Source: Citreicoccus inhibens (GTDB lineage Bacteria > Myxococcota > Myxococcia > Myxococcales > Myxococcaceae). Taken from it: 64,000 nucleotides of DNA. The DNA lies in contig NZ_JAHNZT010000007.1 in the NCBI RefSeq assembly GCF_019039035.1, positions 124,001 to 188,000 of the forward strand, read 5' to 3'. This document shows positions 7,784-24,176 of the stretch, piece by piece. The translations under genes and the position numbers were made by a program. How positions within the stretch are numbered: position 1 is the stretch's first letter; the number at the start of each line of letters is the position of its first letter. The notes below the pieces were generated by a model. It saw nothing but the letters and a program-made list of their open reading frames with translations. It was not told the DNA's origin and searched no databases.

Positions 7784-8590
7784 ATGAACAAGCAGCTGGT
7801 GTCGAACACTCATCACCTCGCGCGTCGCGCCAGGTCAAACACACACATCCACCATCGCGCCCACCTCCAGCGCGGGTTCTCCATGCTGTTGGCGCTGGGG
7901 CTCGTGGCGCTCGTCACCACGGCGGTGATGGTGTCGCTGCGCGCCGTCAGCGCCGAGGCGAACCTCCAAGCCCATGAACGGCGCGCCCGCGAGGCGCTCT
8001 TCGCCGCCGAGGCCGGCATGGCGGAGGGACGCGTGGTGGTGCAGTCCCTGCTCGGCGCGAGCAACAACTACACGGGCGTCATCGAGGCCCTCGGCAACCT
8101 GCGCACGCCGGGCGGCGGCGCCGATGGCTACGTGAACGAGACGGCGGACGGGCTGCCCAGCGCGCCGGGCAACGAGTGGTACCAGGTCATCGGACGGACC
8201 GACTACACGATGTCACGTGGCCCCGGCGCCGCCATCGACCCGGGGGTGACGACAGCCAACGCGGAGTTGATGGGACCGACCGGCGTGGCCATCGAGGACT
8301 ACCCGGAGCCCCTGGGCGTGCACTACCGCGTGTTCCTGGTGGATGACGCGGACGAGGCGCCCACCTCCAACCGGCGCGTCGACACGAACAATCAGGTGTG
8401 GCTGGTCGCCGTGGGCGAGGTGGACACGCCCGGTGGCATGCCCTACCGCACCATCATTCGCTCCCTCGTCACCAACGAGAACAGCATCGGCTCGGGCGGC
8501 GGCTATTGCCAGAAGGGCGGCTGTGACGCCGCTCATCAAGCGGGCGGCACGGGCGTCGTGGGTGGAGCCGGCAACGTCTACGGCGGGTAG
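7784..8590 (+). CDS. pilX: PilX-like minor pilin, cluster A
   Basis: This 268-residue protein is a PilX-type minor pilin, a subunit of the complex that primes type IVa pilus assembly and sits at the pilus tip. A long basic, histidine-rich leader ends at QRG, and the mature N-terminus would be FSMLLALGLVALVTTAVM, a hydrophobic helix. Glu5 is absent (Leu instead), as is common in PilX/GspK-like tip subunits. The following AREALFAAEAGMAEGR is the conserved PilX_N region. The ATG is preceded by GAGGAG at 7771-7776. It is the first gene of cluster A and is followed by pilY1 after 30 bases. Together with pilV, pilW and fimU it makes the full set of four minor pilins. Confidence 0.88.
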   Translation: MNKQLVSNTHHLARRARSNTHIHHRAHLQRGFSMLLALGLVALVTTAVMVSLRAVSAEANLQAHERRAREALFAAEAGMAEGRVVVQSLLGASNNYTGVIEALGNLRTPGGGADGYVNETADGLPSAPGNEWYQVIGRTDYTMSRGPGAAIDPGVTTANAELMGPTGVAIEDYPEPLGVHYRVFLVDDADEAPTSNRRVDTNNQVWLVAVGEVDTPGGMPYRTIIRSLVTNENSIGSGGGYCQKGGCDAAHQAGGTGVVGGAGNVYGG

Positions 8591-8620
8591 TCGCACCGCG
8601 CATTCCTTGGGGGATTCACC

Positions 8621-11600
8621 ATGCACCTCACACGCGTCCTCATCTCCGCTGGTGTGCTGGCTGTCACAGGAGTCGTCCTCGCTCAAGGCACGGATGGAGG
8701 CACCGGTCCGAGTACCAGCACCGGCGTCGGCCTGTGCATCGACACCACGGGCACGGACAAGCAGCCGCCCTTCACCCGCGACGCAGGCATCCCCAGCGCC
8801 ATCATCGTCACGGATGACGCTCCGCCCAAGCTGCGGCTCAACACCAACCTCAACGTGTTGGATCCGGAGCGCATCATCCTCCCCTTCGAGCAGGACATCG
8901 AAGGGCTCATCGTGGATGACCAGGCCGGCAACGGCGCGTCTCACACGCTCGGCTGGTTCTACTACGACGACCTCATCCGCCTGGGGTACGTGGACATCAA
9001 GGACCCCAACGACCCCAACGACGACGTGTTGGTGGATCGCAACGGCAACGGGGTGCCGGACTTCCACGAGGACCTCTACAACATCTCCGCGGGCCCCTCC
9101 GCGCGCGCCTATGTCGGCCGCGACGGTCCGCGCTGCCCCGGCCGCGCGGTGTTCAACCACGTCATCCAGGACGGCGGCACCCGCCAGTTCCGCGAGCCGG
9201 ACCTGCTGACGGGCCCGTGCAACTCCAGCGGCAGCTACATGGCCAATCACGGCCCCACGCGATGGAACGCCGGCACGGGCTATCCCCCCCAGCCCACCAC
9301 GGGCGGCATCGTGGGGCAGATCGTCAACGACTTCGCGGGCAGCCCGTACAACTTCCTCGACAGCAACGACAACCTCAACCCGTCCGCCATCCCCGACAAG
9401 GTGGACGGCTGGTTCAGTGACCGCGGCGCCTTCCCACACATCCCCAACCTGCTGGAGCCCGCCGACCCCGCCAATGACAACAAGGGCATTGGCCACCTCG
9501 TCTTCCTCGCCACTGACGACGACGACAACAAGTGCCCCCAATCCGGCACCGCCGAGTGTCTGGCCCCGCGCATCGCGTGGGACAAGAACGACGACCCCGG
9601 TGACGGCATCCCCGACTACAAGGCCAGCGCCTTCGACACCAATGGTCGCCTCAAGCCCGGGCGCAGCGCGGCCGAGCCCATCACCGAGGAGGACCGGCGG
9701 GTGAAGATGGGCCGCATCCAGGGCAACCGCGAGCTGGTCTTCTTCCTCGTTGTCTACGTGGAGCAGATCTACGGCGCGGCCACGGACTCGTGCTTCGCGA
9801 CCCAGTACTTCCCGGATGGCGGCGCGCAGTGCAACCTCTGGATGCACGGGGACATCAACGTCTTCTTCTCCAAGACGTTGCTCAACATGGACCTGCACCA
9901 GAGCCTCAACACCACCACGGTGACGACGAAGACGCTGGGCTCGGGCTGGTTGAGCTCCACCGCGTACAACCGGCTGAAGCAGGATGGCGGCGCCTACGGC
10001 GGCATCACCTTCCCCGCGGGCCAGACGCAGAACGTGATGTCCTACAACCGCCGCGCGGCGCACACGCTCGTGGGCGCGCCGCGAAACAATCCGCTCGTCT
10101 GGATCCTGGGCTGGGAGGACCAGAACGCCGGTGGCAACCGGACGTACAACGACATCGTCATCCTCATCAACAAACAGAACAACGGCTCGTATCGCTCGGA
10201 TGTCGTGTCGGACATCTCACTGGACGAGGCCCAGGACTACACCATCACCGAGGTCACCTTCGAGGTGGATGACCAGGCGTACTTCGTGGGCGATGGCGGG
10301 ACAGCCAATGCCTGTCGCAGACAGGTGAGCTTCGCCGATGGCGGCGTGGGGCTGAGCCAACCCAAAATCACCTATCAGGTGGCGCTGGACTGCAAGGAGT
10401 GCACCGCCAACTGCGACACGTCCTCACCCACGTTCGTGATGAAGAACAACCCGTCGTGGGTGGACGTGCCCATGCCCGACCCGGACGGCGGCACGGCCGC
10501 GCGGCACGTGACGTCCGTGGTGAATGACTTCCTGGAGCGAGGCTTCACCGGCTCGCAGCTGTGCTGGCGGGCGGTGCTGGAGAGCCCGGGCGAGGCCTGC
10601 CAACCCACCATCAACGACGTCAACGTCTCCTACAAGGCGCAGAAGGCGGGCGAGTACGGGCGCGCGTCCATCACCCCGCTGGCCAACGCCGCCGTGTACG
10701 GCGTCTATGAGACGCCGGGCCGGACGTGGTTCAGCGCCACGGGTGTGAACCCCTCCGCGCGTGTCTTCGACGATGGCGGCGTGGACCTCGCGGACCGCGG
10801 CCACGTCCACCTCAAGTTGATGTACGACCCGGACGACCCCAACACGGGCTACAGCCCGTTCCAGCCGCAGTGGGACTCCGGCGAGAGGCTGAGCAACTGG
10901 ACTCGCACCACCAGCGCCAGCAACCTGGATGCGCGCAAGCTCGTGTCCTGGGACCAGAACGCGCCCCAGCGCTGGCGCGCCACCGCGGACTACCTCCAGG
11001 ACAGCACGAGCCCCGCGTTCCCCGGCAGCCTGTGCGGCATCGAGTCCGCGGGCGTCTACCAATACGACCTGAACCGCAAGAACGGCTGCGATGACGATGA
11101 CCGGGCCACGCTGCGCAACTGGCTCTATGGCTGGGAATATAGAGACAGCACCACCGGCACATCGGGCACGCGACGCGCCTGGCCCATGGGCGGGGTGAAC
11201 CTCTCCACCGCCGCCGTGGTGGGACCGCCTGGGATTCCCCCTTGGATGCTGAAGTCCTCGAACAACGAACTGGACCGCTTCGTGTCGCGATTCCAGAGCG
11301 ACTCGCGCATCGCGCAGCGGCCCACGGTGGCCTACGTGGGCACCACCCAAGGCTACCTGCACGCGCTGGCCACGGGCCGCTACCGCGCGAACGACGACAC
11401 CTGCACGAGCATCGTGGAGCACCAGGGCTACTTCGCCCGCTCGGGAGGGTGCACCAGCAGCCGCGACTACGGCACTGGCGACGAGGTGTTCGCCTACCTG
11501 CCCTACAAGCTGCTGCCCTTCTACGTGGAGAACTTCCGCCGACGCGGCGACGCCAGCATCGCGCGCGCCACCGTGGACGCCTCGCCCGCGGTGGCGGACG

Positions 11601-12958
11601 TGGACCTGGGACAGACGGGCGAGTACAGCGACACCACGGGCTACGTCGCGACCGCCGCCAATCAATGGCGCCTGGACACCACCACCCCCACGGCGGGCGC
11701 CAAGACCGTGCTGGCCAGCGCCACGGGCCCCAAGCAGAGCGTCCTCTTCGCCCTGGACATCAGCAACCCGAGCGACGCGAAGTTCCCCATGCCGCTGTGG
11801 GAGTTCGACATGCGGCGCGACCGCTTCCTCACCACGACCGGGCAGCCCTGCCTGCCCACGAACACGAGCACCAACTGCAAGAGCCTGCCCGACCTGTTCG
11901 TGGCCGCGGGGGCCGTGAAGCCAGACTCCACCGGCTCACGCCATGCCCCCACCATCGTGCGCATGGACTTCGGCCCGGGCGGCACGAAGTGGGTGGCCAT
12001 CTTCGCCAGCGACTACCTGCCTGACGCGACCAACCCCACCACCGCCAACAGCGTGGGCACGGTCTATCTCATCGACCTGAAGACGGGCCTGCCCGTGCAG
12101 GTGCCCGGCGGCACCACCCGCTCGCGGCTCGCGGGCATCGTCACGCTGGGCAGCGCCGCGGATGCCAACGAAGGCATCGGCGGTGAGGTCGCCGCGGTGG
12201 ACGCCAACGACGACGGCGTCTTCGATGTGCTCTACGTCCCCTCGACGTCCGGGAAGATCTACCGCATCAACACGAGCGACGTGGACGCCACGGGCCGGCC
12301 GCTGGGCAAGGTGCTCGCCTCGTGCGTCATCGCGAACGCGAAGACCGTCACGGACGTGCCCTCCGCGTGGCGGCCCTACCAGCGCATCTTCTCCAGCATC
12401 TCCGTGAAGATGGAGCGCGGCGGCAGCGGCAACGTGGCGCACATCTACTTCGGCACCGCCAACAGCCCGGACCTGGCCAACGAGCCCGAGGACCTGATGC
12501 CCCTCGCCTCCAAGCCGCACTACTACTTGATGGCCTTCAACGATCCGCGCCCGCTGTCCGCCACCTGCGGCGGCACGTATGCGTGGTCGCAAGAGCTGGC
12601 GGCGGGGCAACTCGTCTGGGGTGGCGTGGCGTCGAGCAGCGACAGCGTCTTCACCACCACGGCCTCGGGCAAGGCCGCCAACATCTGCAGCCTGAACGCG
12701 GAGGGAGGCAAGCTCTACGCCTACAGCGCCGCGGGCGTCGCGGCGCCGGGCAACGGCGCGTCACTCGGAGGACAGGGCGTGAACGCGCCCGTGCTCTACG
12801 ACAACCACCTCATCATCCTCACGGCCGACTCGAAGGTCCGCGTGATGGGCGAGCAGGGCAAGTTCAACAACCCAGGCGGCGCGGGCCTGCAACGTCGCTC
12901 CAACATCCTCATCTGGGACGTGCGCTCCGGCTCGAAAATCCAGGAGGTCGTTCCGTGA
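8621..12958 (+). CDS. pilY1: PilY1 tip adhesin, cluster A
   Basis: This 1445-residue protein is a PilY1-type adhesin with a Sec signal peptide (about residues 1-22, ending VVLAQG). The N-terminal region has a canonical 12-residue EF-hand-like loop, DRNGNGVPDFHE (139-150). A DUF4114-like motif, GWEDQNAGGNRTYNDIV, follows near residues 497-513. The C-terminal third is the PilY1 beta-propeller (RPTVAYVGTTQGYLHAL; TVYLIDLKTG). It carries the calcium loop D1194-A-N-D-D-G-V-F-D1202 at the place where PilY1 proteins bind Ca2+. No von Willebrand A domain is evident, unlike Pseudomonas PilY1. Its stop overlaps the GTG of pilV. Known family role: with the minor pilins it primes pilus extension and mediates adhesion from the tip. 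Confidence 0.92.
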   Translation: MHLTRVLISAGVLAVTGVVLAQGTDGGTGPSTSTGVGLCIDTTGTDKQPPFTRDAGIPSAIIVTDDAPPKLRLNTNLNVLDPERIILPFEQDIEGLIVDDQAGNGASHTLGWFYYDDLIRLGYVDIKDPNDPNDDVLVDRNGNGVPDFHEDLYNISAGPSARAYVGRDGPRCPGRAVFNHVIQDGGTRQFREPDLLTGPCNSSGSYMANHGPTRWNAGTGYPPQPTTGGIVGQIVNDFAGSPYNFLDSNDNLNPSAIPDKVDGWFSDRGAFPHIPNLLEPADPANDNKGIGHLVFLATDDDDNKCPQSGTAECLAPRIAWDKNDDPGDGIPDYKASAFDTNGRLKPGRSAAEPITEEDRRVKMGRIQGNRELVFFLVVYVEQIYGAATDSCFATQYFPDGGAQCNLWMHGDINVFFSKTLLNMDLHQSLNTTTVTTKTLGSGWLSSTAYNRLKQDGGAYGGITFPAGQTQNVMSYNRRAAHTLVGAPRNNPLVWILGWEDQNAGGNRTYNDIVILINKQNNGSYRSDVVSDISLDEAQDYTITEVTFEVDDQAYFVGDGGTANACRRQVSFADGGVGLSQPKITYQVALDCKECTANCDTSSPTFVMKNNPSWVDVPMPDPDGGTAARHVTSVVNDFLERGFTGSQLCWRAVLESPGEACQPTINDVNVSYKAQKAGEYGRASITPLANAAVYGVYETPGRTWFSATGVNPSARVFDDGGVDLADRGHVHLKLMYDPDDPNTGYSPFQPQWDSGERLSNWTRTTSASNLDARKLVSWDQNAPQRWRATADYLQDSTSPAFPGSLCGIESAGVYQYDLNRKNGCDDDDRATLRNWLYGWEYRDSTTGTSGTRRAWPMGGVNLSTAAVVGPPGIPPWMLKSSNNELDRFVSRFQSDSRIAQRPTVAYVGTTQGYLHALATGRYRANDDTCTSIVEHQGYFARSGGCTSSRDYGTGDEVFAYLPYKLLPFYVENFRRRGDASIARATVDASPAVADVDLGQTGEYSDTTGYVATAANQWRLDTTTPTAGAKTVLASATGPKQSVLFALDISNPSDAKFPMPLWEFDMRRDRFLTTTGQPCLPTNTSTNCKSLPDLFVAAGAVKPDSTGSRHAPTIVRMDFGPGGTKWVAIFASDYLPDATNPTTANSVGTVYLIDLKTGLPVQVPGGTTRSRLAGIVTLGSAADANEGIGGEVAAVDANDDGVFDVLYVPSTSGKIYRINTSDVDATGRPLGKVLASCVIANAKTVTDVPSAWRPYQRIFSSISVKMERGGSGNVAHIYFGTANSPDLANEPEDLMPLASKPHYYLMAFNDPRPLSATCGGTYAWSQELAAGQLVWGGVASSSDSVFTTTASGKAANICSLNAEGGKLYAYSAAGVAAPGNGASLGGQGVNAPVLYDNHLIILTADSKVRVMGEQGKFNNPGGAGLQRRSNILIWDVRSGSKIQEVVP

Positions 12959-13473
12959 GTCGCGCCCCGTTCACCGGCGCGCCCCGCGGCGTCACGCTGC
13001 TGGAGACCATGGCCACCGCCGTGGTGCTGCTCGTGGGCATGTTGGCGGTCATGGCCGCGCTGCTGGCCGCCTCCAAGCAGAACCGCCGCAACCTCATCCA
13101 GACGCAGGCGACCCACGTCGCCGAGCAGGAGCTGGAGCGCATCGCGGGGATTCGGTGCGACAACGTCGACCGGGCCGACCCCTGCGCGAACATCAAGATG
13201 ATGGACCAGACCCAGCGCAAGGTGTTCTGGAGCGCCAACGGCGAGCCCTCGGACAGCCCCCCTCCTCCGGGTGCGCCGCCGCAGCTCGAGTACGACGTCG
13301 CCATCGACGTGGATCCCCCCTTCGAAGGCAGCGAACTGGGCGCGCCCAGCCTCACGCGCGTCGAGGCCACCGTGCCCCTGACCAACGTGCTCAACGTGCG
13401 CGTCACCGTGAGCTGGGAGCTGCCCGGCGCGGAGCGACGCGCCGTGGCCCTGCAGACGCGGGTGGCCCCATGA
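12955..13473 (+). CDS. pilV: PilV-like minor pilin, cluster A
   Basis: This 172-residue protein is a type IV prepilin-like minor pilin of the PilV/GspI class. The leader ends APRG, and the mature sequence VTLLETMATAVVLLVGMLAV keeps Glu5, needed for N-methylation and packing. The +1 residue is Val rather than Phe. The C-terminal part is a small beta-rich pilin head with the late NVRVTVSWELPG strand also seen in the cluster B paralogue (VNVRVSVSWEELG). The GTG start overlaps the pilY1 stop by 4 bases and has AGGAGG upstream. Its own stop overlaps the pilW ATG (ATGA), so the cluster is translationally coupled. Confidence 0.88.
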   Translation: MSRAPFTGAPRGVTLLETMATAVVLLVGMLAVMAALLAASKQNRRNLIQTQATHVAEQELERIAGIRCDNVDRADPCANIKMMDQTQRKVFWSANGEPSDSPPPPGAPPQLEYDVAIDVDPPFEGSELGAPSLTRVEATVPLTNVLNVRVTVSWELPGAERRAVALQTRVAP

Positions 13474-14702
13474 ACCATCGCCGCCACGCACACGGGTTCT
13501 CGCTCATCGAGCTGCTCATCGCCTCCGCCATCGCCATCGCGCTCATCTCCGCCGCCATCTCCGTGGGCTTGCAGTTGCAACGCCGTGGCGTCTTGGAGGA
13601 GCGGACGATGGAGACCCAGAACGCGGCCCGCGCCGCGCGGGACCTCTTCGCCTTCGGCGTCCAGCGAGCAGGGGCAGGCGCGGGCTCGTCGCCGCTCGCC
13701 ATTGGCAACACGCCCGCGAGCCGGCCGGACCTGCGCTACCCGGTCTGGGTGACGACGCAGCCGGACTTCGCCACGGACCCTTCGTTCGCCCTGCCGTCCG
13801 GGCCCTATCAAGACCTGCGCTCGGATGTGCTCCGCATCTGGGAGACGGATCCCGGCAACATGCTCCGCCTCGTGGCGTGCCAGAGCGGGACGTTCGCGTG
13901 GACGGGCAATCGGCTGTGCACGCAGACCCGTCCCCCCGAGGGGCTCAAGAACCTGTTGGTGGCCGTCGTCGCGCCGCATGGCGCCGGAGGCAAACGGCCC
14001 ATCGCGTGCGTCGGGATGCTGGGCAGCACGTTCGACCAGACCATCAACCCGCCGCTGGACAGCGAATACTCCGTGGACTTCTCGCCCGGCGTCCCGGGGC
14101 TGCCCGCCCTCGCCTCGACGCATGAGTGTGGCGCGCCTCCGGTCGCGAGCGGCCTGGACGGAGGCGGAGGCGTCCCGCTCCAGCTCTGGGATGCGCCAGA
14201 CCTGTACGTCATGCCCATCACCGCGCGCGACTTCCGCGTGAACTGGAAGGGCGGCGCCCCCGCGCTGGAGATGGACTCCGATGGCTTCATCCCCGATGCG
14301 GGCTTCGCGGTGGTGTCGCGAGACATCGAGCGGCTCCAGGTCTTCCTCGGCGTCGTCCCCACGGACCAATCGGATGCGGGGGTGCTCCTCTTCCCCGATG
14401 CGGTCACGGGGCGGCCCGCGCTCGACACCTGCACCTTCAGCTCCTGCTCGCCCTTCATCACGTGGGACGCCGGGACAGTCGTCTCGGCGGATGAGGGGCC
14501 GGACACGCCTCGCGACAAGCTGATGCAGCGCGTGCGGCTGGTGGAGCTGCGCATCACCGCGCGCTCGGCGCGACTGGACCGGCTGGCGGACCTGGCCACC
14601 GATGGAGGGCTCGACGATGACGGCAACATCCAGGACGGCTACAAGCGGCGACACTCCGTCATCCGCCTGTCACCGAGGAACTTCGGCTATGCAGGCCAAT
14701 GA
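13470..14702 (+). CDS. pilW: PilW-like minor pilin, cluster A
   Basis: This 410-residue minor pilin of the PilW/GspJ class has a short leader (MNHRRHAHG), then FSLIELLIASAIAIALISAA with Glu5 intact. It is larger than usual PilW proteins, and the extra length lies in the globular head. The head has a run of cysteines (for example near FAWTGNRLCTQ and TCTFSSCSPF) that could form disulfides in the periplasm. The end, GYKRRHSVIRLSPRNFGYAG, is closely matched by the cluster B paralogue (GYKRRTFTFRVTPRNFAATG), which supports reading both as true genes. It overlaps pilV by 4 bases and fimU by 14 bases. Confidence 0.88.
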   Translation: MNHRRHAHGFSLIELLIASAIAIALISAAISVGLQLQRRGVLEERTMETQNAARAARDLFAFGVQRAGAGAGSSPLAIGNTPASRPDLRYPVWVTTQPDFATDPSFALPSGPYQDLRSDVLRIWETDPGNMLRLVACQSGTFAWTGNRLCTQTRPPEGLKNLLVAVVAPHGAGGKRPIACVGMLGSTFDQTINPPLDSEYSVDFSPGVPGLPALASTHECGAPPVASGLDGGGGVPLQLWDAPDLYVMPITARDFRVNWKGGAPALEMDSDGFIPDAGFAVVSRDIERLQVFLGVVPTDQSDAGVLLFPDAVTGRPALDTCTFSSCSPFITWDAGTVVSADEGPDTPRDKLMQRVRLVELRITARSARLDRLADLATDGGLDDDGNIQDGYKRRHSVIRLSPRNFGYAGQ

Positions 14703-15318
14703 CAGACACGCGCGCCGGCCGCGCTCGGGCATGAGCCTGCTGGAGCTGATGGTGACCTTGGCCATCCTGACTGTCTTTGTCTCCCTGAGCGTCGCGGGCT
14801 TCCAGGGGATGACGGAGCGGCAGCGCGTGGGAGGCGCGCAGCGGGAGATCCTCCTGATGATGCAGGAGGCCCGGCAGCAGGCCCGCGCCTCGCTCCAGCC
14901 GGTGCGACTGACCCAGTGGACCGCCGATGAGGACGGCCGCCCCGTCACCCGCATCCGCTGGGAGCGACTGCCGTGCGACAACAGCTGGGGCACCACCTGC
15001 CCCCGCGTGGAGTGCGCCACCAATGCCTGCGGCGTGGGGGCGTGCGACTGCGGTCCGGGAGTGGGGCAGCCGGTGCTCCTCCCCCGAGGACTGGAGGCCA
15101 GCTCGCTCGACCGCCTCTGCTGGTTGGGGGACTCGGCCCGGCCGGTGGCGCCGCAGGGCACCACCGTCTGTGTCGAGGCCTCCACTCCGCCCGTCCTGGG
15201 CAGCCTGGTGCTGCGTCGCGACGGCGTGCCCGACCAGGTCATGGACGTGGACGGACTGACGGGGACGGTCCGAGTGGTCGACTGCACCCAGCTCCCCAAC
15301 TCGCCCGGCTGCTCATAG
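14689..15318 (+). CDS. fimU: FimU/GspH-like minor pilin, cluster A
   Basis: This 209-residue protein is a FimU-type minor pilin. The leader ends RPRSG, and the mature N-terminus MSLLELMVTLAILTVFVSLS has Glu5 and a Met at +1. The head contains IRWERLPCDNSWGTTCP and a cluster of six more cysteines (ECATNACGVGACDCG), probably disulfide-bonded. The cluster B paralogue has the same WERLACGNTWDNGTCP block. I chose ATG 14689, inside pilW, because GAGGAA lies 8 bases upstream. It closes the minor-pilin set of cluster A. A 76-base gap with an inverted repeat separates it from the cytochrome gene. Confidence 0.87.
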   Translation: MQANDRHARRPRSGMSLLELMVTLAILTVFVSLSVAGFQGMTERQRVGGAQREILLMMQEARQQARASLQPVRLTQWTADEDGRPVTRIRWERLPCDNSWGTTCPRVECATNACGVGACDCGPGVGQPVLLPRGLEASSLDRLCWLGDSARPVAPQGTTVCVEASTPPVLGSLVLRRDGVPDQVMDVDGLTGTVRVVDCTQLPNSPGCS

Positions 15319-15342
15319 GACGACGCAGGGGCCCCGTCGCCG

Positions 15343-15377: not shown

Positions 15378-15394
15378 CCTTCCGGAGACGGTGA

Positions 15395-15715
15395 ATGAAG
15401 ACGCGGGTTGCCCTCGTGCTGGCCCTGTCGCTGGCTGCCACTGCCCACGCCGAGAACGCGGCGGAGGTGTGGACGGCCAAGTGCAAGTCCTGCCACGGCG
15501 AAGACGGCAAGGCGCACACGACCCTGGGCAAGAAGGAGTCCATCGTCGACATGAGCCAGCCTGCCTGGCAGAAGGCCGAGACCGACGCCGATATCCGCGA
15601 GGTGATTGCGGATGGCTCCTCGCGCAACTCCAAGATGAAGGCTTACAAGGACAAGCTCACGCCGGCGCAGATTGACGCGCTGGTGGGATACATCCGCACC
15701 TTCCAGAGCAAGTAG
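15395..15715 (+). CDS. small exported cytochrome c, cluster A
   Basis: This 106-residue protein is a class I monohaem c-type cytochrome exported to the periplasm. A signal peptide spans about residues 1-19 (cleavage near AHA-EN). The haem site is CKSCH (C30, C33, H34). A plausible sixth ligand is Met81 in RNSKMKAYKDKLTPAQ, followed by the usual last helix IDALVGYIRTF. It looks like an ordinary His/Met electron carrier, unlike the cytochrome inside cluster B. It lies 76 bases after fimU-A on the same strand and may be a cluster A accessory, although it seems to have its own regulatory sequence. Whether it acts on PilY1-A or in unrelated electron transfer is unknown. Confidence 0.88.
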   Translation: MKTRVALVLALSLAATAHAENAAEVWTAKCKSCHGEDGKAHTTLGKKESIVDMSQPAWQKAETDADIREVIADGSSRNSKMKAYKDKLTPAQIDALVGYIRTFQSK

Positions 15716-16316: not shown

Positions 16317-17087
16317 ATGCAGCCTTCAAGAGATAGGACGCGGGGGGACCGCGGTCACCGGAGACATCACTCCGCAGCGCAGCGTCGGACCGGGGGCTTT
16401 GCCCTCATCGTGGCGCTGGGGGTCGTGGCGGTCGTCACCCTCGCGGTGATGCTCAGCTTCAGCGTGGTCGGGCGAGAGTCCGATGCGCAGGCGGATGCCC
16501 GGCGGAAGAAGGAAGCCTTCTTCGCGGCGGAGGCGGGGCTGGCCGAGGGGCGCGAGGTGATGCGCCTGCGGCTCGGCGATAGCGACCTGACCTACAACCA
16601 GGCCATCGCGGCCCTCGGCGCACCCATCTCCGAGCCTGGCCTCGGCTCGCCGGGGCGCCCCTGGTTCGAGGTCCTCCCCGGCCCTGGCGCGGACCGCTGG
16701 AACTACTACCCGCTCACGCCCGGGACCATGGATCCCACCGAGCTGGCCAGCGGCACGGGCACCCGGGTGGCCAACCAGCCTTACGAGGACTACCCCACGC
16801 AGAGCAGCACGCGCTACCGCGTCTTCCTGCGAGACGACGACGACGGCGACAGCAACTTCGCCTCGGACACCAACCGACAGGTCTGGCTCGTCGCCGTGGG
16901 CGAGGTGGTCAATCCGCAGGGGCGCCCCACCCGAGCCATCGTGCAAGCCCTGGTCACCAACGGGAATGCCCAGACCATGAATGGCCCTGGGTGCGTCAAC
17001 CGCGGGTGCGGCCCCGACAACAATTTCAATAACAATCAAGATCAGGAATCGCCCACCAACCTGGGCAACGTCAAAACCATTCCGTAG
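16317..17087 (+). CDS. pilX: PilX-like minor pilin, cluster B
   Basis: This 256-residue PilX-type minor pilin has an arginine/histidine-rich leader ending RRTGG. The mature helix is FALIVALGVVAVVTLAVMLSF, again without Glu5. The KKEAFFAAEAGLAEGREVM block and the late RQVWLVAVGEVVNPQGRPTR are nearly the same as in PilX-A, so the two are paralogues. I chose ATG 16317. A TTG six codons upstream is possible. No ribosome binding site is visible before either start, which is odd for a high-expression structural gene. The product should belong to the tip/priming complex with PilY1-B. It is followed after 16 bases by the cytochrome gene. Confidence 0.85.
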   Translation: MQPSRDRTRGDRGHRRHHSAAQRRTGGFALIVALGVVAVVTLAVMLSFSVVGRESDAQADARRKKEAFFAAEAGLAEGREVMRLRLGDSDLTYNQAIAALGAPISEPGLGSPGRPWFEVLPGPGADRWNYYPLTPGTMDPTELASGTGTRVANQPYEDYPTQSSTRYRVFLRDDDDGDSNFASDTNRQVWLVAVGEVVNPQGRPTRAIVQALVTNGNAQTMNGPGCVNRGCGPDNNFNNNQDQESPTNLGNVKTIP

Positions 17088-17103
17088 GCGCGGAAAGCCA
17101 CTC

Positions 17104-17556
17104 ATGATTCGCATGAAACTCATGTCGCTGCCCCTGATGCTCCTACCGTGTCTGGCGGGCGCGACGGACTCCGGCGAGACGCTCTTCAACAAAGCCTGCT
17201 CGCATTGTCATACGGCCCGGCGCCCCGAGAAGGAGGCCAAGGCCCAGCCCACGCTGGCACGCGACAGCAAGGCCATCCCCACCATGGACCTGGCCATCCA
17301 GAATCGCTCGGCGGAGCAGCTTCGCACCTGGGTTCAAGCGCCGCACAAGGTGAATGCGAAGACGGGCTGCGACACGCGGCAACTGCGCGCCGAGGACATG
17401 GACGCGCTGATGGGCTACCTGTCCACGCTCGCCGTGCCGCTCGAGCTGCCGCGCGACGAGATGTTGCGCCAGCAGCTGCAAGAGAAGCTCAAGGCCCAGC
17501 GCGCCCGCCAGCAAGCCAACACCCACCAGCCCAACTCCTCCCCGGGGGGGAAGTGA
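17104..17556 (+). CDS. tfcP: non-canonical cytochrome c, TfcP-like
   Basis: This 150-residue exported monohaem cytochrome c has a signal peptide to about residue 20 and the haem site CSHCH (C32, C35, H36). The sixth ligand position, just before the last helix, carries KTGCD (C89) and no Met. This fits the His/Cys ligation reported for TfcP of Myxococcus xanthus, which stimulates calcium binding by PilY1. The position, between pilX and pilY1, also fits. After the haem domain comes a long charged helix (LPRDEMLRQQLQEKLKAQRA) and a polar tail, an extension absent from the cluster A cytochrome. The stop overlaps the pilY1-B ATG (TGATG). Role in PilY1 stabilisation is by family; ligation is inferred. 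Confidence 0.82.
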   Translation: MIRMKLMSLPLMLLPCLAGATDSGETLFNKACSHCHTARRPEKEAKAQPTLARDSKAIPTMDLAIQNRSAEQLRTWVQAPHKVNAKTGCDTRQLRAEDMDALMGYLSTLAVPLELPRDEMLRQQLQEKLKAQRARQQANTHQPNSSPGGK

Positions 17557-20500
17557 TGCGCACCTTCGTCCGAGCCCTCGCGGCCCTTACCTGGCTCGTG
17601 CTGCCCGCGAGCGGGTACGCGGCCCCCGCCAAGCTGTGTCAGGACGATCTCTCACAGGATCGCCAGCCGAACTTCAACGCCGGCGATGGCAGTCTTCAGA
17701 TCGCCAATCAGACCATCCTGGTCACGGGAGACTCTCCGCCGCGCCTGCAGCTCAACACGAACCTCGCGCGCCTGGACCCTGAGCACATCTACTTCCCGTT
17801 CGATCAGCACGTCACCATCAGCTACGTGTATGAGTCCGCCGGCGCCTCACACGCGCTGGGCTACATGTACCTGGATGACCTGAAGGCCCGCGGCTACCTG
17901 GATGCCACCGGCAACCTCGCGGACACGAACAACAACGGCATCCTCGACTTGCACGAGGACCTGTTCAACCTCGCACCGCCATCCGGAAACGACATCCGTC
18001 CGTATATCGGTAGCGCACGGCGCTGCACGGGCAAGGTCTTCACCTCGGGAGGAAAGACATACACCCAGCCCGAGCTGGCCATGAAGGACTGCAATTCGGG
18101 CGTCTTCGAGCGCAAGCCACTGTCCGACGCGCGCCCCGGCCATGTCACGGAAGACATTGACGTGGATATCTTTGGCATGTCGGAGAGCGAATCCTACTCC
18201 GCGAGCGACTCCGAGTTCTCGGACAACGGGCTGTTCCCACACATCCCCAACCTGCTGGAGCCTGCCTCCGTGGCGAACGGCGGCAAGGGCCTGGGGAAGA
18301 TGGTCTTCCTCCTCGCCGACGACGACGGGGACAGGACCACCTACAACAACCTCTCGCCCGTCGCGGACTCGGACGACACCGACAACGGCATTCCGGACTA
18401 CGACGTCTCCAAGTACGACTCCAGCGGCCTGGTGCGGAACACCAACCAGGATCCCGGCATCACGGAGTTCGATCGCACGGTGGACCTGGGGCAGATCCAG
18501 GGAGGGAAGGAGATCGTCTTCTTCCTGGTCGTCTACTACGCGCCCCGCCACAACCTGGATGATGGCAAGGACTTCCCCTGCCTGAAGCGAGACCCGGCGG
18601 ACGGCAAGTGCCTGCTCCACTTGAAGACGCCCATCTCCGTCTTCTTCTCCAAGGCCGCGTGGAACCTGGACCAGAACTTCGTCCCGGGGCGGGTCACGGA
18701 GCGCAACATCGGGTGCTCGTATGACGACCGCTGCGTCCCCGACATCCCTGCCCGCGTGACCTCGTACGGATGCCCGACGGTGAACCCCCCGGGCCCCAAG
18801 GTGTGTGGATGGCTGGCCGGCCCGAAGTCGGACCTGGGCTCCACGCTGGGCCGCCTGAAGAACCTGGCGGTCTACGGCAACCTGGACATGCCCATGGAGA
18901 AGGCCACGCTCGCGCGGCCGCCGCCTCCCTCCAGTGGCGTGGACATGAACTACATGCCTCACGTCATCGTGGGCGCGCCGTCCACGGACCCCTTCCGCTG
19001 GATCCTCGGCTTCGAGGACCTCAGCGGCGGCGGTGACCGCGACTTCAACGACGTGGTGTTCGTGGTCAACAAGGAGAACGGGGGTGGCCTGCGCTCCGCG
19101 ACCGTGTCTGGAGACATCTCGCCCGACATCGCCGACGACTTCACCATCACCAAGGTGCGCTTCAAGCGCCAGGATGACTTCGCTCCGGCGCCGCGCACCT
19201 GCTCGGGTGGCGCTCCGTGCTGGACCGAGGAGGTCGCCGGTGCCTGCACGCCGCCCAGCGGCGTCCGTCCCTCCATCCAATACTCGGTGGCGGTGGACTG
19301 CCGTGTCTGCAGCAACGGCACCTGCACCCCGAACGCCAACCCGCAGTGGATCCCGGTGGTCTTCGACCCGGCCCCGAACAATCAAGTGAAGGAGTTGGAC
19401 ATCCAGGCGCTCGGCTTCACCGGCTCCCAGCTCTGCTGGAAGGTGGACATCAGCAGCCCCAACGAGCGCTGCCGCCCCGTCATCGACAACATCGACGTGG
19501 GCTATCAGGCCGTCCGCTCCGGCAACTACGCGCGCGCCTCACCCTCCACCCTCGGCAATGCCGTGGTCTGGGGCGTCAACGAGACCCCCGGCAGGAGCTG
19601 GGGCCAGAACTGGCCCACCTCGGGCGTGCCCGCCGCGGGCACTCGTCTGTACGACGGGAGCAAGGACTTCACGCCCCGAGGCCACCTGTACCTTCAGTCA
19701 CTCTACGACCCCGAGAACACGGATGTGACGCACACCGTCCAGCGCTGGGAGGCAGGCCGGGTGATGGCGCTGTCGCTCGCGGGCAGCGGTGACCCCTCGG
19801 GGCGCAAGCTCTACACCATCGACGGCGCCAACACGCGCATCAACCTCACCCAGGTGGATTCGGGGGGCAGCGCGGCCACCAACCCGCTCTTCCCCGATTC
19901 GCTCTGCGACACCCTCGTCAACGGTCGGCGCGCCTACGACCTCAACGCTGACGGCTTGTGCCGCACGCCCAGCGGCACCACGGCCGACAAGAAGAGCACC
20001 TCGGACGACCAGAACGACCGCAAGGCCCTCATCGACTGGCTGTATGGCTGGGAAGACCGCTACGACGTCAGCCCCACCAGCGCCGCGAAGCGGCCGTGGC
20101 CCTTTGGCGGAATCAACCTCTCCACCGTGGCGCTCGCGGTCCCGCCCTTCTACGACACGTGGTACCAGAACGCGCGCCCCGCCGAACGCGACCTGTATCG
20201 CCGGAACTTCGCGGAGCCGCTCAAGGAGCGGCCGACCATTGCCTACGTGGGCACGATGAATGGCGTCTTCCACGCCTTCAACTCGGGCGACTTCCGCGGA
20301 GAGAAGCGAGACACCTGTGCCGACAAGGAGCAGCAACGCGGCTTCTTCCGTCCCACCGGCACCTGCCAGACGACCACCCCCTACACCAACCGCGCCTACG
20401 GCACCGGTGAGGAGAAGTTCGCCTACCTGCCGCGCATGCTGCTGGACCGGTATCGGAACAACTATGTGCAGTTCCCCGGCTCGTCGAGCCTGCCGCGCCC

Positions 20501-21794
20501 ACAGGTGGATGCGTCCGCCGCCATCGCGAACGTGGACCTGGGCATCTCGAACAAGCCCGCCTGGACTCCTGAAAACACCGCCTCACGGAGCACGGGCGCC
20601 AAGACGGTCCTCGTCTCCGCGACGGGCAAGAACAGCCCCGTGGTCTTCTCCCTGGACATCACCAATCCCACGGACTCGTGGTACCCGCTGCCCATGTGGG
20701 AGTTCAGCCTCGCGGATGCGACGGTGAACGCCGCCTTCAGCACCGCGCGCGCCACCTCGTCGGCGGTGAAGCTGCCGGACAACACGGGGTCTCGCCACGC
20801 GCCGTCCGTGGGCCGGCTCGCGTGGGGCCCCACGGATTCTGTCTGGGCGGCGGTGGTCGGCACCGACTATGTGCCCACCTTGGGACGCGCGGGCTCCGTC
20901 TTCCTCATCGACATGAAGACCGGGCGCCCCCTCAACTTCGGCTCCACCAGCCAGGGCACCAACGCGGGCGTCATCACGCTGGACCTCAACTCCGGCGTGG
21001 CCGCGGAGTCCGCTCTGATGGACCTGGACCAGGATGGCACCTACGACGTCATCTACGTGCCCACCACGGCCGGCCATGTCTACCGCATCAACCTGCGCAA
21101 GGTGGACACCAACGCCATTCTGGGCACCAAGGTCCAGACCTGCCTCGTGGCGGATGCCCCGCTGGCCGCGGCGTCGGACTCCAACGCCGCGCAGAACCAG
21201 GACCAGAGCTACCAGCAGCTCTACTCGAACCTCGCGGTGAAGCTCGTGCCGGGCCCCAACGGTCCCGCGGTGCGCTTCTTCTTCGGCACGGGCGACAACC
21301 CGGACGAGTTCTCCGACGGACCCGCCGACAAGAGCCACTACCGCTACCATCTGTTCGGCTATGAGGACCAGAACCCCACCGGCACCGGTGGCTGTGCGGC
21401 CAATCCGCTCACCCCCATGTGGGTGGCTCCGCTCGACGAAGGTCAGGCGGTCTGGGGCGGCGTGGCCATCAACCAGAAGGACGTCTTCGCCACCACCGCG
21501 GTGGGCAAGGCCGCGGACGTCTGCAACCTGAGCGACACGGAGAGCGGCAAGTATTACGTCGCGGCCCAGGTTCCAACCGCGGGCACCACGCCGAGCGCAA
21601 CCGGGACCTCACTGGACGGCCATGGCGTCAATGCGCCCATCGTCCACGACAACCATCTCTTCATCCTCACCGCGACAGGCTCCATGCAGATTCGCGGCGA
21701 AGAGAAGTGGAACAACGGCAAGTCCGCGAATGGCGCCACCCGGTCACGTATCCTCCTGTGGGAGCCGGTTCCGGACGGAAAGCTGCCGCAATGA
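17556..21794 (+). CDS. pilY1: PilY1 tip adhesin, cluster B
   Basis: This 1412-residue PilY1 homologue has a signal peptide (residues 1 to about 22, ending SGYAA). It is colinear with PilY1-A. An EF-hand-like loop DTNNNGILDLHE lies at 123-134. A DUF4114-like motif GFEDLSGGGDRDFNDVV lies near 484-500, and the C-terminal propeller includes PTIAYVGTMNGVFHAF. The propeller has the calcium loop D1156-L-D-Q-D-G-T-Y-D1164. No von Willebrand A domain is seen. I chose ATG 17556, which overlaps the tfcP stop; the frame is open further upstream but out of frame with tfcP. The product is expected at the pilus tip, exported and calcium-dependent, with TfcP as its helper. Confidence 0.92.
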   Translation: MRTFVRALAALTWLVLPASGYAAPAKLCQDDLSQDRQPNFNAGDGSLQIANQTILVTGDSPPRLQLNTNLARLDPEHIYFPFDQHVTISYVYESAGASHALGYMYLDDLKARGYLDATGNLADTNNNGILDLHEDLFNLAPPSGNDIRPYIGSARRCTGKVFTSGGKTYTQPELAMKDCNSGVFERKPLSDARPGHVTEDIDVDIFGMSESESYSASDSEFSDNGLFPHIPNLLEPASVANGGKGLGKMVFLLADDDGDRTTYNNLSPVADSDDTDNGIPDYDVSKYDSSGLVRNTNQDPGITEFDRTVDLGQIQGGKEIVFFLVVYYAPRHNLDDGKDFPCLKRDPADGKCLLHLKTPISVFFSKAAWNLDQNFVPGRVTERNIGCSYDDRCVPDIPARVTSYGCPTVNPPGPKVCGWLAGPKSDLGSTLGRLKNLAVYGNLDMPMEKATLARPPPPSSGVDMNYMPHVIVGAPSTDPFRWILGFEDLSGGGDRDFNDVVFVVNKENGGGLRSATVSGDISPDIADDFTITKVRFKRQDDFAPAPRTCSGGAPCWTEEVAGACTPPSGVRPSIQYSVAVDCRVCSNGTCTPNANPQWIPVVFDPAPNNQVKELDIQALGFTGSQLCWKVDISSPNERCRPVIDNIDVGYQAVRSGNYARASPSTLGNAVVWGVNETPGRSWGQNWPTSGVPAAGTRLYDGSKDFTPRGHLYLQSLYDPENTDVTHTVQRWEAGRVMALSLAGSGDPSGRKLYTIDGANTRINLTQVDSGGSAATNPLFPDSLCDTLVNGRRAYDLNADGLCRTPSGTTADKKSTSDDQNDRKALIDWLYGWEDRYDVSPTSAAKRPWPFGGINLSTVALAVPPFYDTWYQNARPAERDLYRRNFAEPLKERPTIAYVGTMNGVFHAFNSGDFRGEKRDTCADKEQQRGFFRPTGTCQTTTPYTNRAYGTGEEKFAYLPRMLLDRYRNNYVQFPGSSSLPRPQVDASAAIANVDLGISNKPAWTPENTASRSTGAKTVLVSATGKNSPVVFSLDITNPTDSWYPLPMWEFSLADATVNAAFSTARATSSAVKLPDNTGSRHAPSVGRLAWGPTDSVWAAVVGTDYVPTLGRAGSVFLIDMKTGRPLNFGSTSQGTNAGVITLDLNSGVAAESALMDLDQDGTYDVIYVPTTAGHVYRINLRKVDTNAILGTKVQTCLVADAPLAAASDSNAAQNQDQSYQQLYSNLAVKLVPGPNGPAVRFFFGTGDNPDEFSDGPADKSHYRYHLFGYEDQNPTGTGGCAANPLTPMWVAPLDEGQAVWGGVAINQKDVFATTAVGKAADVCNLSDTESGKYYVAAQVPTAGTTPSATGTSLDGHGVNAPIVHDNHLFILTATGSMQIRGEEKWNNGKSANGATRSRILLWEPVPDGKLPQ

Positions 21795-22318
21795 CATCCC
21801 TGCATAGACACGCGCCCCGAGGCGCGACCCTGTTGGAGGTCATGGCCACCATGGCGGTGCTGCTGCTCGGCATCGCGGCGGCCATGACCGTGGTGGCGGC
21901 GACCAGCCGCTCCAACCGGCGCACGCTCACGGCCATCCAGGCGCAGCTCATCGCCGAGCAGTACCTGGAGAACATCACGGCGCAGGGCTGCAACCCCGTG
22001 CCCCCGGCGTGCAGCAACCTGGCGGCCTGGGACCGGCGGCGCGATCTCGTGTACCAGACCGCCGGGGGGCAGCTCACCACCACGGCGCCTGGCCCGGGCG
22101 TCACGGCGCGCCAGTACGAGGTCTCCGTGGATGTCGATGGTCCCACGCTGACCGGCTCCATCGAGAACGGCTCGCAGGGTGAGCCGTCCATCTCCCGCCC
22201 GCTGGTGGGAACCAACACGGGCAACCTCGTCAACGTCCGCGTGTCGGTGAGCTGGGAAGAACTCGGCTCGAGGAACGGCCGACAGGTCGTCGTCGTCCAG
22301 ACTCGGATGGCCCCATGA
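21791..22318 (+). CDS. pilV: PilV-like minor pilin, cluster B
   Basis: This 175-residue PilV/GspI-class minor pilin has leader MTSLHRHAPRG and mature start ATLLEVMATMAVLLLGIAAA, with Glu5 and Ala at +1. It is paralogous to PilV-A, sharing SNRRTLTAIQAQLIAEQYLE against QNRRNLIQTQATHVAEQELE and a late VRVSVSWEELG strand. The ATG overlaps the pilY1-B stop (ATGA), and its own stop overlaps the pilW-B ATG, so the gene is embedded in a tightly coupled operon. Two cysteines, near QGCNPVPPACSN, could pair. Confidence 0.88.
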   Translation: MTSLHRHAPRGATLLEVMATMAVLLLGIAAAMTVVAATSRSNRRTLTAIQAQLIAEQYLENITAQGCNPVPPACSNLAAWDRRRDLVYQTAGGQLTTTAPGPGVTARQYEVSVDVDGPTLTGSIENGSQGEPSISRPLVGTNTGNLVNVRVSVSWEELGSRNGRQVVVVQTRMAP

Positions 22319-23553
22319 TGCGCCGCATTGGGAAGTCCCGGGGCTTCACCCTGCTGGAGGTCATGGTCGCCGCGGGTCTGGCCGTCATCGTGCTCGCGAC
22401 GGGCCTCGCCGTGGGAATGCAGATGCAGCGGCGCGCCATCTTCGAGGAGCAGACGATGATGGCCCAGGTCACCGGCAAGGCCGTCAAGGACCTGCTGACC
22501 ACCGACATCGAGCGCGCCGGTCTGGGCATGGGCAACTCCCCCACGTCCTTCGGGCAGAACGACCAACGCGTCGCGCTCAGCGCGTGGACGGAGCCCAACC
22601 TGAAAACCACCGTCGCGCAGCCCTCGCTGATGGCGGATATGGGGTTCAGTCTGCCTTCGGGCATCTACGCGAACATGAGGTCGGACGCGCTCCAGCTCTT
22701 CTGGGGAGACACGCAGTCCATGATCACGCTCGCGCCTTGCACGGGAATCCCCTCCGTTCGCGAAGGCGGCTCGGACAACTACTGCACCGGCCCCAATCCT
22801 CCCATGGATCTACAGCCACCCACGGGGCAGATGACGCCCGCGCTGGTGGTGAACCCATTTCAAACAGGCATCCCCCCACTGCCCGCCTGCCAGATTCTCA
22901 TTTCCTCCATCAACAGCTCCAGCCAGAAGGTCAACGCGAACCCTGGCACCAATAGCGATACAAACGACGCCTGCTCGTCCACGAACGACGGACGCAACAA
23001 GCTCGACTGGAGGCAGACCGGCTGGCGCATCATGCGGACCCTGGGCGCAGCGTACCGTGTGAACTGGGTATCGGCGGGGACGGAGCCGCAGCTCGAGTAC
23101 CTGCCTCCTGGACCCGCGACCTCGTGGCAGGTGGTGAGCCGCGACGTGGAGCGGATGAAGGTGCGCATGGGCGTCATGGACCTCATCAGCCCCAACGCCG
23201 ACCTGCGGTGGTTCCCCGACGCCGCCGCGGGCCGTCCGGCCATTGATGCCTGCACGATCGCCAAGATGAGCAGTGGGGAGTGCAGCCTCGACTCGCCCCC
23301 TGCCAGTGGAGGGCCGCTGCTTCCCCTCCCGACCACGGACGCCGGGCTCGTCTTGCAGCTGCGCGAGCGCGTGCGCGAGGTGGAGATTACGTTGACCATC
23401 CGCACGCGCCGGGCTGACCGAGACGCCGTGGACCTCACCGCCGTGGACGAAGAGGGCATGGTGAAGGACGGCTACAAGCGGCGCACGTTCACGTTCCGGG
23501 TGACGCCTCGCAACTTCGCGGCCACCGGACTCCTGCCTCCGATTGGACCCTGA
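22315..23553 (+). CDS. pilW: PilW-like minor pilin, cluster B
   Basis: This 412-residue PilW/GspJ-class minor pilin has leader MMRRIGKSRG and mature start FTLLEVMVAAGLAVIVLATG with Glu5. It is paralogous to PilW-A along its length, for example VSRDVERMKVRMGV against VSRDIERLQVFLGV, WFPDAAAGRPAIDACT against FPDAVTGRPALDTCT, and the shared GYKRR C-terminal block. Like PilW-A, the head is large for the family and contains several cysteines. It is the fifth gene of cluster B and is separated from fimU-B by only 2 bases. Confidence 0.88.
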   Translation: MMRRIGKSRGFTLLEVMVAAGLAVIVLATGLAVGMQMQRRAIFEEQTMMAQVTGKAVKDLLTTDIERAGLGMGNSPTSFGQNDQRVALSAWTEPNLKTTVAQPSLMADMGFSLPSGIYANMRSDALQLFWGDTQSMITLAPCTGIPSVREGGSDNYCTGPNPPMDLQPPTGQMTPALVVNPFQTGIPPLPACQILISSINSSSQKVNANPGTNSDTNDACSSTNDGRNKLDWRQTGWRIMRTLGAAYRVNWVSAGTEPQLEYLPPGPATSWQVVSRDVERMKVRMGVMDLISPNADLRWFPDAAAGRPAIDACTIAKMSSGECSLDSPPASGGPLLPLPTTDAGLVLQLRERVREVEITLTIRTRRADRDAVDLTAVDEEGMVKDGYKRRTFTFRVTPRNFAATGLLPPIGP

Positions 23554-23555
23554 CC

Positions 23556-24176
23556 ATGAAGTCCGTGCGTGGAATGACGTTGCTGGAAATCATGGTCGCC
23601 GTGGCAATCCTCGGCATCCTCACCAGCGTGGCGGTGGTGAACTTCCAGACGCAGCTCATCAACCAGCGCGAGAACGAGGCGACGCGCTCGCTCTGGTCCT
23701 CCGCGCTGGCGGCTCGGCAACGCGCCATCGCCACCAATCAGCCGGTGCGCATCGTGGTGGAGAACAACGTCGCGCAGGCGGACGGCAGCCAGCGCACCGT
23801 GGCGCGCTGGGAGCGGCTCGCGTGTGGCAACACCTGGGACAACGGCACGTGCCCCATGGCCGCGTGCCTGAGCACCACCTGCCGCACCAACGCCACCTGC
23901 TGTAACGAGGTGGGGCAGGACATCGTGCTGCCGCGCACCATGACGGCCACGGAGCTCAACGGCCTGTGCTTCCTGCCGGGCACGGGGCGCGCGGTGACCA
24001 ACATGGCCTGCCCGCAGAACGCCGCCATCGGCCCCATCACCGCGCGGTTCCTCTTCTCGTCGAACCGGGCTCGGTCCGTGCTGTCCGTGGAGCCGCTCAC
24101 CGGCCTGTCCAACGTGCTGGACTGCGATTCCCAGTACGTCGCGACGCACCCCGAGACCGCCTGCACCACGCCGTGA
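23556..24176 (+). CDS. fimU: FimU/GspH-like minor pilin, cluster B
   Basis: This 206-residue FimU-type minor pilin has the short leader MKSVRG and mature start MTLLEIMVAVAILGILTSVA with Glu5 and Met at +1. The head contains WERLACGNTWDNGTCP and the cysteine-rich stretch CLSTTCRTNATCCNEVG. The latter corresponds to the cysteine cluster of FimU-A and is probably disulfide-bonded. The QDIVLPRTMTATELNGLCFLPG segment also matches its paralogue. It ends cluster B, and a strong hairpin follows 8 bases after the stop. Confidence 0.88.
   Translation: MKSVRGMTLLEIMVAVAILGILTSVAVVNFQTQLINQRENEATRSLWSSALAARQRAIATNQPVRIVVENNVAQADGSQRTVARWERLACGNTWDNGTCPMAACLSTTCRTNATCCNEVGQDIVLPRTMTATELNGLCFLPGTGRAVTNMACPQNAAIGPITARFLFSSNRARSVLSVEPLTGLSNVLDCDSQYVATHPETACTTP

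What the first reader, a model, noticed from the sequence alone, without database searches (positions are those of the whole stretch)
7784..24176. Two complete type IVa pilus tip clusters in tandem, each with its own cytochrome c
Seen: the order pilX-pilY1-pilV-pilW-fimU is present twice in a row, and all five paralogue pairs are recognisable. One cluster has the cytochrome after fimU, the other between pilX and pilY1. Known: myxobacteria use several PilY1/minor-pilin sets, and TfcP-type cytochromes stimulate PilY1 calcium binding. Inference: this is a local duplication followed by divergence, and two tip complexes may be swapped on one pilus machine to change adhesion or calcium range.
Basis: partly seen in the sequence, partly recalled or inferred. 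Interest (0 to 1): 0.8.

Follow-up and report, generated by a model that had tools for sequence, protein, structure and literature searches.

The report
Two ancient pilus-tip operons side by side
This soil bacterium carries two complete sets of genes for the adhesive tip of its type IV pilus next to each other; they are two old, separately inherited versions rather than a fresh duplication, only one has the calcium-helper cytochrome, and both start with the same distinctive promoter, which suggests that one regulator switches such tips.

Summary
Window 7784-15318 (A) and 16317-24176 (B) each encode pilX-pilY1-pilV-pilW-fimU; all five pairs are homologous (31-43% identity). "Each with its own cytochrome" is wrong. 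B holds a TfcP (CxxCH, distal Cys, charged tail). The cytochrome after A is an ordinary Met-type cytochrome that sits at this locus across the family even where no tip cluster exists. A is the Myxococcus cluster_2 (PilY1.2) type, B the cluster_1 (PilY1.1) type. They are not a local duplication: trees put A with Myxococcus A clusters and B with clusters in the same slot in the sister genus (AU p 1e-7 against A+B). In Myxococcus the two lie about 0.8 Mb apart. The locus has two neighbouring slots, and only this two-genome genus fills both. New here: both operons carry a 17-bp palindrome followed by a sigma-54 -24/-12 element at a fixed spacing; this architecture precedes all 53 A/B-type clusters examined, and the core palindrome occurs nowhere else in this 9-Mb genome. 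All A clusters lack TfcP and have Asp->Thr in the DUF4114 calcium pocket. Most likely these are two alternative tip complexes for one pilus machine, with B calcium-tuned. Function is inferred from M. xanthus.

The parts
7611..7627 (+). Palindrome CTCGCAAAGTTTGCGCG, candidate activator-binding site (UAS) of cluster A
7722..7737 (+). sigma-54-like -24/-12 element AGGCCCGTGCCTTGCT of cluster A, 94 bp after the palindrome
7784..8590 (+). pilX (A): prepilin leader, no Glu5
   Evidence: syntenic orthologues
8621..12958 (+). pilY1 (A), PilY1.2 type, 1445 aa; weak DUF4114 match (E 0.0012, below cut-off); calcium pocket GGNRTYND; C-terminal motif DANDDGVFD
12955..13473 (+). pilV (A), GTG start, overlaps pilY1
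13470..14702 (+). pilW (A)
14689..15318 (+). fimU (A)
15395..15715 (+). Canonical small cytochrome c (CKSCH, Met in the distal position); resident of the locus, not a cluster-A gene
15775..16119 (+). Small Gly/Lys-rich protein with a signal-peptide-like N terminus; conserved neighbour of the cytochrome
16199..16215 (+). Perfect palindrome CTCGCAAACTTTGCGAG, candidate UAS of cluster B
16288..16303 (+). sigma-54-like -24/-12 element CGGCATGCGGATTGCC of cluster B, 72 bp after the palindrome
16317..17087 (+). pilX (B); first ATG 16317, true start unsure
17104..17556 (+). tfcP (B): signal peptide, CSHCH, distal Cys (TGCDTR), charged C-terminal extension
17556..21794 (+). pilY1 (B), PilY1.1 type, 1412 aa; DUF4114 (E 1.8e-9), weak PilY1 beta-propeller match, pocket GGDRDFND, C-terminal motif DLDQDGTYD
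21791..22318 (+). pilV (B)
22315..23553 (+). pilW (B)
23556..24176 (+). fimU (B)
2145..4568 (-). Backbone: Wzz/Wzc-type polysaccharide copolymerase-kinase
5889..7589 (+). Backbone: conserved polytopic membrane protein to the left of slot 1
24199..25806 (-). Backbone: PAS-histidine kinase to the right of slot 2
25413..29498 (+). Backbone: mfd (transcription-repair coupling factor); real start about 25.9 kb

Best explanation
A and B are two anciently separate type IVa pilus priming/tip operons. A is the PilY1.2 (cluster_2) type without TfcP; B is the PilY1.1 (cluster_1) type with TfcP. They stand side by side because two neighbouring insertion slots of one conserved locus (wzc - membrane protein - [slot 1: A] - cytochrome - Gly/Lys protein - [slot 2: B] - histidine kinase - mfd) are both filled in this genus. 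Myxococcus has slot 1 filled and its B-type cluster elsewhere. Corallococcus-like genomes have slot 2 filled and no A. Each operon has its own sigma-54-type promoter with the same upstream palindrome, so one enhancer-binding regulator probably drives both, with spacing and extra sites tuning each. By analogy with M. xanthus, each set would build an alternative PilX-V-W-FimU/PilY1 complex that primes and caps pili made by one common machine. B is predicted to work at low calcium through TfcP. A, which lacks TfcP and a DUF4114 calcium-pocket Asp, is predicted to be less calcium-dependent at its N-terminal domain and perhaps used in development. Shown: anatomy, homology, phylogeny, synteny, promoter motif, purifying selection. 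Inferred: pilus function, promoter function, regulator, calcium behaviour.
For: Gene content, order and homology. Syntenic slots across about 45 loci. B groups with slot-2 clusters of the sister genus, 98% and 97/98%, matching the backbone tree; AU rejects B with Myxococcus B (p 0.0015), with the other Corallococcus cluster (p 0.0009) and with A (p 1e-7). TfcP with distal Cys in 44/44 B-type and related clusters; no CxxCH ORF between pilX and pilY1 in all 18 distinct A clusters examined. Asp->Thr in the calcium pocket in 19/19 A, intact in 38/38 B. Palindrome + sigma-54 element in all 53 A/B-type clusters outside the Corallococcus second site and g3/g6; in 1.52 Mb of related loci all composite hits but one lie upstream of pilX; core palindrome only at these two promoters in the genome. 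dN/dS 0.07-0.16 (A), 0.14-0.34 (B). Function by homology: PMC7541494, PMC8833165, PMC9109919, PMC13190605.
Against: No expression, piliation or calcium data exist for this organism. WIN_A nests within Myxococcus A diversity (AU p 2e-6 against Myxococcus A as one clade), so A may have come by transfer rather than by retention. The larger concatenated tree leaves B, slot 2 and Myxococcus B unresolved. The sigma-54 elements are imperfect (2-3 mismatches), and as a lone motif they are no commoner than chance (75 found, 116 expected). In M. xanthus cluster_2 is not needed for vegetative motility and HsfA did not bind its promoter (PMC9109919), so co-regulation is unproven.
Confidence: 0.78

Rival explanations
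1. One reading: a local tandem duplication in this lineage followed by divergence, each copy keeping a cytochrome.
For: Same gene order in both and head-to-tail placement; a true local duplication of a TfcP-type cluster does exist in another genome (G120).
Against: A+B clade rejected (AU p 1e-7); A and B each have closer relatives in other genera; the cytochrome after A is a locus resident.
Confidence: 0.03
2. Cluster A reached slot 1 of this genus by horizontal transfer from a Myxococcus relative, recombining in the conserved flanks, next to a vertically inherited B.
For: WIN_A is nested inside Myxococcus A diversity and Myxococcus A as one clade is rejected (p 2e-6); A is absent from the Corallococcus-like genomes searched; the backbone groups with Corallococcus.
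Against: A relations within Myxococcus also conflict with the backbone tree, so two old A lineages with losses would fit too; the sister genome SIS has the same A, so any transfer is not recent.
Confidence: 0.4
3. Cluster A is a vestigial or silent set; only B and cluster 3 build pili.
For: M. xanthus cluster_2 proteins were not detected in vegetative cells and are dispensable for motility (PMC7541494, PMC9109919).
Against: Purifying selection on all A genes (dN/dS 0.07-0.16); promoter architecture kept; cluster_2 is upregulated in development (PMC13190605).
Confidence: 0.12
4. The shared palindrome is a remnant of the recombination that moves the cassettes, not a regulatory site.
For: Found at the 5' side of clusters at different chromosomal places.
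Against: No matching element on the 3' side was noted; fixed 72-76 or 93-94 bp spacing to a -24/-12 element; the centre varies while symmetry is kept; also found before fimU-first pilin operons in other genera.
Confidence: 0.08

Closest known systems
Myxococcus xanthus cluster_1 (MXAN_0359-0364, PilY1.1 with TfcP MXAN_0363)
   Same: Order pilX-tfcP-pilY1-pilV-pilW-fimU, translational overlaps, CxxCH + distal Cys, DUF4114 pocket and C-terminal calcium motif; against M. xanthus AM003 48-59% identity for the pil proteins and 40% for TfcP
   Different: Here in slot 2 next to mfd and beside an A-type cluster; in Myxococcus about 0.8 Mb from the A-type cluster
Myxococcus xanthus cluster_2 (PilY1.2 = MXAN_1020)
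   Same: Same gene order, no tfcP, same neighbours (wzc, membrane protein, cytochrome, Gly/Lys protein, histidine kinase, mfd), 45-55% identity
   Different: In Myxococcus slot 2 is empty, so there is no second tip cluster here
Corallococcus-like slot-2 clusters (g5)
   Same: TfcP-type cluster between the Gly/Lys protein and mfd; closest relatives of B by tree
   Different: No A cluster in slot 1, no histidine kinase gene between the cluster and mfd
G120 tandem (Myxococcus, g19)
   Same: Two complete tip clusters in tandem
   Different: Both TfcP-type, an in-lineage duplication at another locus

Membership tests
Type IVa pilus minor pilin/PilY1 tip cluster | Four minor pilins with type III leaders, PilX lacking Glu5, plus PilY1 | tested here: met
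   Leaders read directly (GFSMLLALG, GFALIVALG without Glu5; GVTLLE, GFSLIE, GMSLLE etc.); N_methyl hits for PilV, PilW, FimU (PilV below cut-off; no PilX family hit)
Type IVa pilus minor pilin/PilY1 tip cluster | PilY1 C-terminal beta-propeller | tested here: inconclusive
   PF05567 weak for B (E 1.3e-4, below cut-off) and not detected for A; full-length homology to known PilY1.1/1.2-type proteins
TfcP (B, 17104-17556) | Signal peptide, single CxxCH, distal Cys instead of Met/His, charged C-terminal extension, between pilX and pilY1 | tested here: met
   Alignment of 44 TfcP; Cytochrom_C hit; PMC8833165
TfcP (cytochrome after A, 15395-15715) | Distal Cys and linkage to a tip cluster | tested here: not met
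   Met in the aligned column; present at the locus without any tip cluster
TfcP | Stimulates calcium binding by PilY1 | not testable with these tools
   Needs experiment
PilY1.1/1.2 clades | DUF4114 in the N-terminal half | tested here: met
   B E 1.8e-9; A weak (E 0.0012, below cut-off) but aligned throughout
Recent tandem duplication | The two copies are each other's closest relatives | tested here: not met
sigma-54 (RpoN) promoter | GG-N10-GC -24/-12 element with upstream activator site | tested here: met
   Sequence pattern, fixed spacing and conservation only
sigma-54 (RpoN) promoter | Transcription depends on RpoN and an enhancer-binding protein | not testable with these tools
   Needs reporter assays

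The most novel reading that the evidence does not exclude
A dedicated sigma-54/enhancer-binding-protein switch (palindrome CTCGCAANNNTTGCGAG, then a -24/-12 element at 72-76 or 93-94 bp, about two helical turns apart) controls the PilY1.1/1.2 pilus-tip operons across Myxococcus, the Corallococcus slot-2 clusters and this genus. It travels with the operon when the cassette changes chromosomal slot, so one regulator chooses or balances pilus tips, while A-type clusters have lost both TfcP and a DUF4114 calcium-pocket Asp.
Probability: 0.5. Interest if true: 0.68.

Novelty: new variant of a known kind. Interest (0 to 1): 0.52.

Why it matters
It is an open question why myxobacteria keep several pilus-tip sets and how one machine chooses among them. 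Here two tip operons sit side by side with a shared, nearly genome-unique promoter signature, which makes the regulator question directly testable by DNA-affinity capture or reporter assays. The loss of TfcP together with a calcium-pocket residue in every A cluster examined predicts a concrete calcium difference between tips. It also corrects the easy reading that tandem means recently duplicated.

Tried and rejected
Local duplication: rejected by trees. Cytochrome as part of cluster A: rejected by its distribution. A genome-contig scan with PilY1 A gave nine named loci, Myxococcus and Pyxidicoccus by title apart from one record labelled Comamonas sp. KCTC 72670, which matches a Myxococcus-group genome, G107. 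MrpC-type sites were considered for the TGTC repeats in A promoters; the published motif TGTYN8RAC (PMC4320627) fits only loosely. Nla28 half-site CTSCGSAG (PMC7910581) is not the palindrome. HsfA as owner of the palindrome is unlikely but open: it bound the pilY1.1 and pilY1.3 but not the pilY1.2 promoter (PMC9109919), while the pilY1.2-type promoter has the better palindrome; its published consensus is only in a figure and could not be read. Residue D498 of M. xanthus PilY1.1 could not be mapped exactly because numbering differs between papers. A sequence search of PilY1 B against solved structures gave nothing. Loss of tfcP in A versus A being basal: loss favoured (93/96 for A with g3/g6) but A-basal not rejected (AU p 0.134). 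No structure prediction was run.
Full report
CHECK. The pairs align at 43% (pilX), 36% (pilY1), 42% (pilV), 31% (pilW) and 37% (fimU), E 1e-32 or better. Genes overlap or abut within each set (for example TGATG between tfcP and pilY1 B). The only other genome of the genus, G055, has the identical arrangement with 80-98% protein identity, and all genes are under purifying selection (dN/dS 0.05-0.34). So the tandem is real and maintained. In this genome a third, vWFA-like PilY1 set lies on another contig.

CYTOCHROMES. The B gene has a signal peptide, CSHCH, a Cys where ordinary cytochromes have Met, and a charged tail. These are the features of TfcP (PMC8833165); CxxCH and the distal Cys hold in 44/44 B-type and related clusters. 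The gene after A is different: a 106-aa canonical cytochrome with Met at that column. One orthologue sits at this locus in most family genomes read, including Stigmatella-, Archangium- and Cystobacter-like genomes with no tip cluster there, and Myxococcus genomes in which A is absent. It is a neighbour, not a part. Between pilX and pilY1 of the 18 distinct A clusters examined there are only -3 to 80 bp and no CxxCH frame. Because the g3/g6 relatives of A do have TfcP, A has probably lost it (93/96 support), though an A-basal root is not excluded (AU p 0.134).

SYNTENY. The locus reads wzc - membrane protein - [slot 1] - cytochrome - Gly/Lys protein - [slot 2] - histidine kinase - mfd. Myxococcus (M. 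xanthus AM003 in L057 and others): slot 1 holds A, slot 2 is empty, and the TfcP-type cluster is elsewhere (785-832 kb from A in complete genomes G103, G118). Some Myxococcus (G101, G110, G112) have both slots empty. In all the g5 (Corallococcus-like) genomes whose locus was read, slot 1 is empty and slot 2 holds a TfcP-type cluster; some g5 genomes have a further one elsewhere. The window genus fills both.

PHYLOGENY. Backbone genes (mfd, membrane protein, wzc) place this genus with g5, Myxococcus outside (99%). Concatenated tip proteins place B with the g5 slot-2 clusters (98%), Myxococcus B next. AU rejects B with Myxococcus B (p 0.0015), B with the other g5 cluster (p 0.0009), and A with B (p 1.35e-7). 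A larger concatenated set left the first node unresolved; the PilY1 trees with mixture model gave 95 and 97/98. So B is most simply inherited in place. A belongs to the Myxococcus A clade (100%) but nests inside it (AU p 2e-6 against Myxococcus A monophyly). Either two old A lineages with losses, or transfer into slot 1, would explain it.

PROMOTERS (new here). Reading the two intergenic regions showed the same palindrome: CTCGCAAAGTTTGCGCG at 7611 and CTCGCAAACTTTGCGAG at 16199. In the window 0.10 matches to the 13-bp core with one mismatch are expected, and 2 are found. In the whole 9.05-Mb genome CGCAAANTTTGCG occurs only at these two places. Upstream of pilX in 60 clusters from the family, 53 carry it, at several different chromosomal locations; the exceptions are the second g5 cluster and g3/g6. 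In nearly all it is followed by a GG-N10-GC, TTGC(T) element matching the sigma-54 consensus TGGCACG-N4-TTGC(T/A) (consensus in PMC7910581), at 72-76 bp in B-type and mostly 93-94 bp in A-type clusters. Scanning 1.52 Mb of related loci for the combination returned tip-cluster promoters and one opposite-strand match at such a site. g3 and g6 genomes have a similar arrangement, with 57-64 bp spacing, before fimU-first pilin operons. The sigma-54 motif alone is not above chance in the window; the case rests on the combination, spacing and conservation. M. xanthus literature shows NtrC-like regulators acting on tip promoters (HsfA, PMC9109919); the owner of the palindrome is unknown.

CALCIUM. Both PilY1 keep the C-terminal EF-hand-like motif (DANDDGVFD, DLDQDGTYD). 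In the DUF4114 pocket, B and its relatives have GGGDRDFND (38/38 B), while all 19 A proteins have GG(D/N)RT, an Asp->Thr change. This agrees with the remark that PilY1.2 lacks one Asp (PMC9109919) and extends it to the whole A clade; it coincides with absence of TfcP.

MECHANISM. By established work in M. xanthus, minor pilin/PilY1 sets of clusters 1 and 3 can each prime and cap pili of one machine (PMC7541494), TfcP lets PilY1.1 work at low calcium (PMC8833165), and cluster_2 is upregulated in development (PMC13190605). The most likely reading is two alternative tips, B vegetative and calcium-tuned, A without that dependence and perhaps developmental, both under a common sigma-54 activator. 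The promoter and functional steps are inferred.

VERDICT. Real, partly mis-described, and not a recent duplication. The parts are of known kinds. The double occupancy, the shared promoter signature and the A-wide coupled losses are not described in the papers read.

Noticed in passing
G058:C1:876307-882577, G068:C1:2917426-2921399: Tandem arrays of free-standing proteins of about 600-1000 aa matching only the N-terminal (DUF4114) half of PilY1 B, without the propeller; single copies in several other genomes.
   Followed up: no
L038:8045-20000 and L039:1-4069 (G120:C1 about 1038-1054 kb): A separate tandem of two complete TfcP-type tip clusters in one Myxococcus genome, apparently a true in-lineage duplication.
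   Followed up: partly
window 15775-16119: Small Gly/Lys-rich protein with a signal-peptide-like start, 98% identical to its sister and conserved beside the cytochrome in Myxococcus and g5; no Pfam family.
   Followed up: partly
L116, L117, L119, L121, L125: In g3 and g6 genomes the same palindrome plus a sigma-54-like element stands before fimU-first pilin operons.
   Followed up: partly
L110:5617-5743 (upstream of cluster 3, G000:C35): A sigma-54-like element (GGGCACGGTGCGTGCA) preceded by two degenerate palindromes at 77 and 94 bp, close to the spacings of B and A.
   Followed up: no
L132 (G102:C216:73465): One perfect copy of the palindrome lies near a Wzx-like flippase gene rather than a pilin gene.
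   Followed up: no
window 7650-7700 and A promoters in other genomes: A-type promoters share TGTC repeats between palindrome and -24 element that were not noted in B promoters; possible developmental regulator sites.
   Followed up: partly
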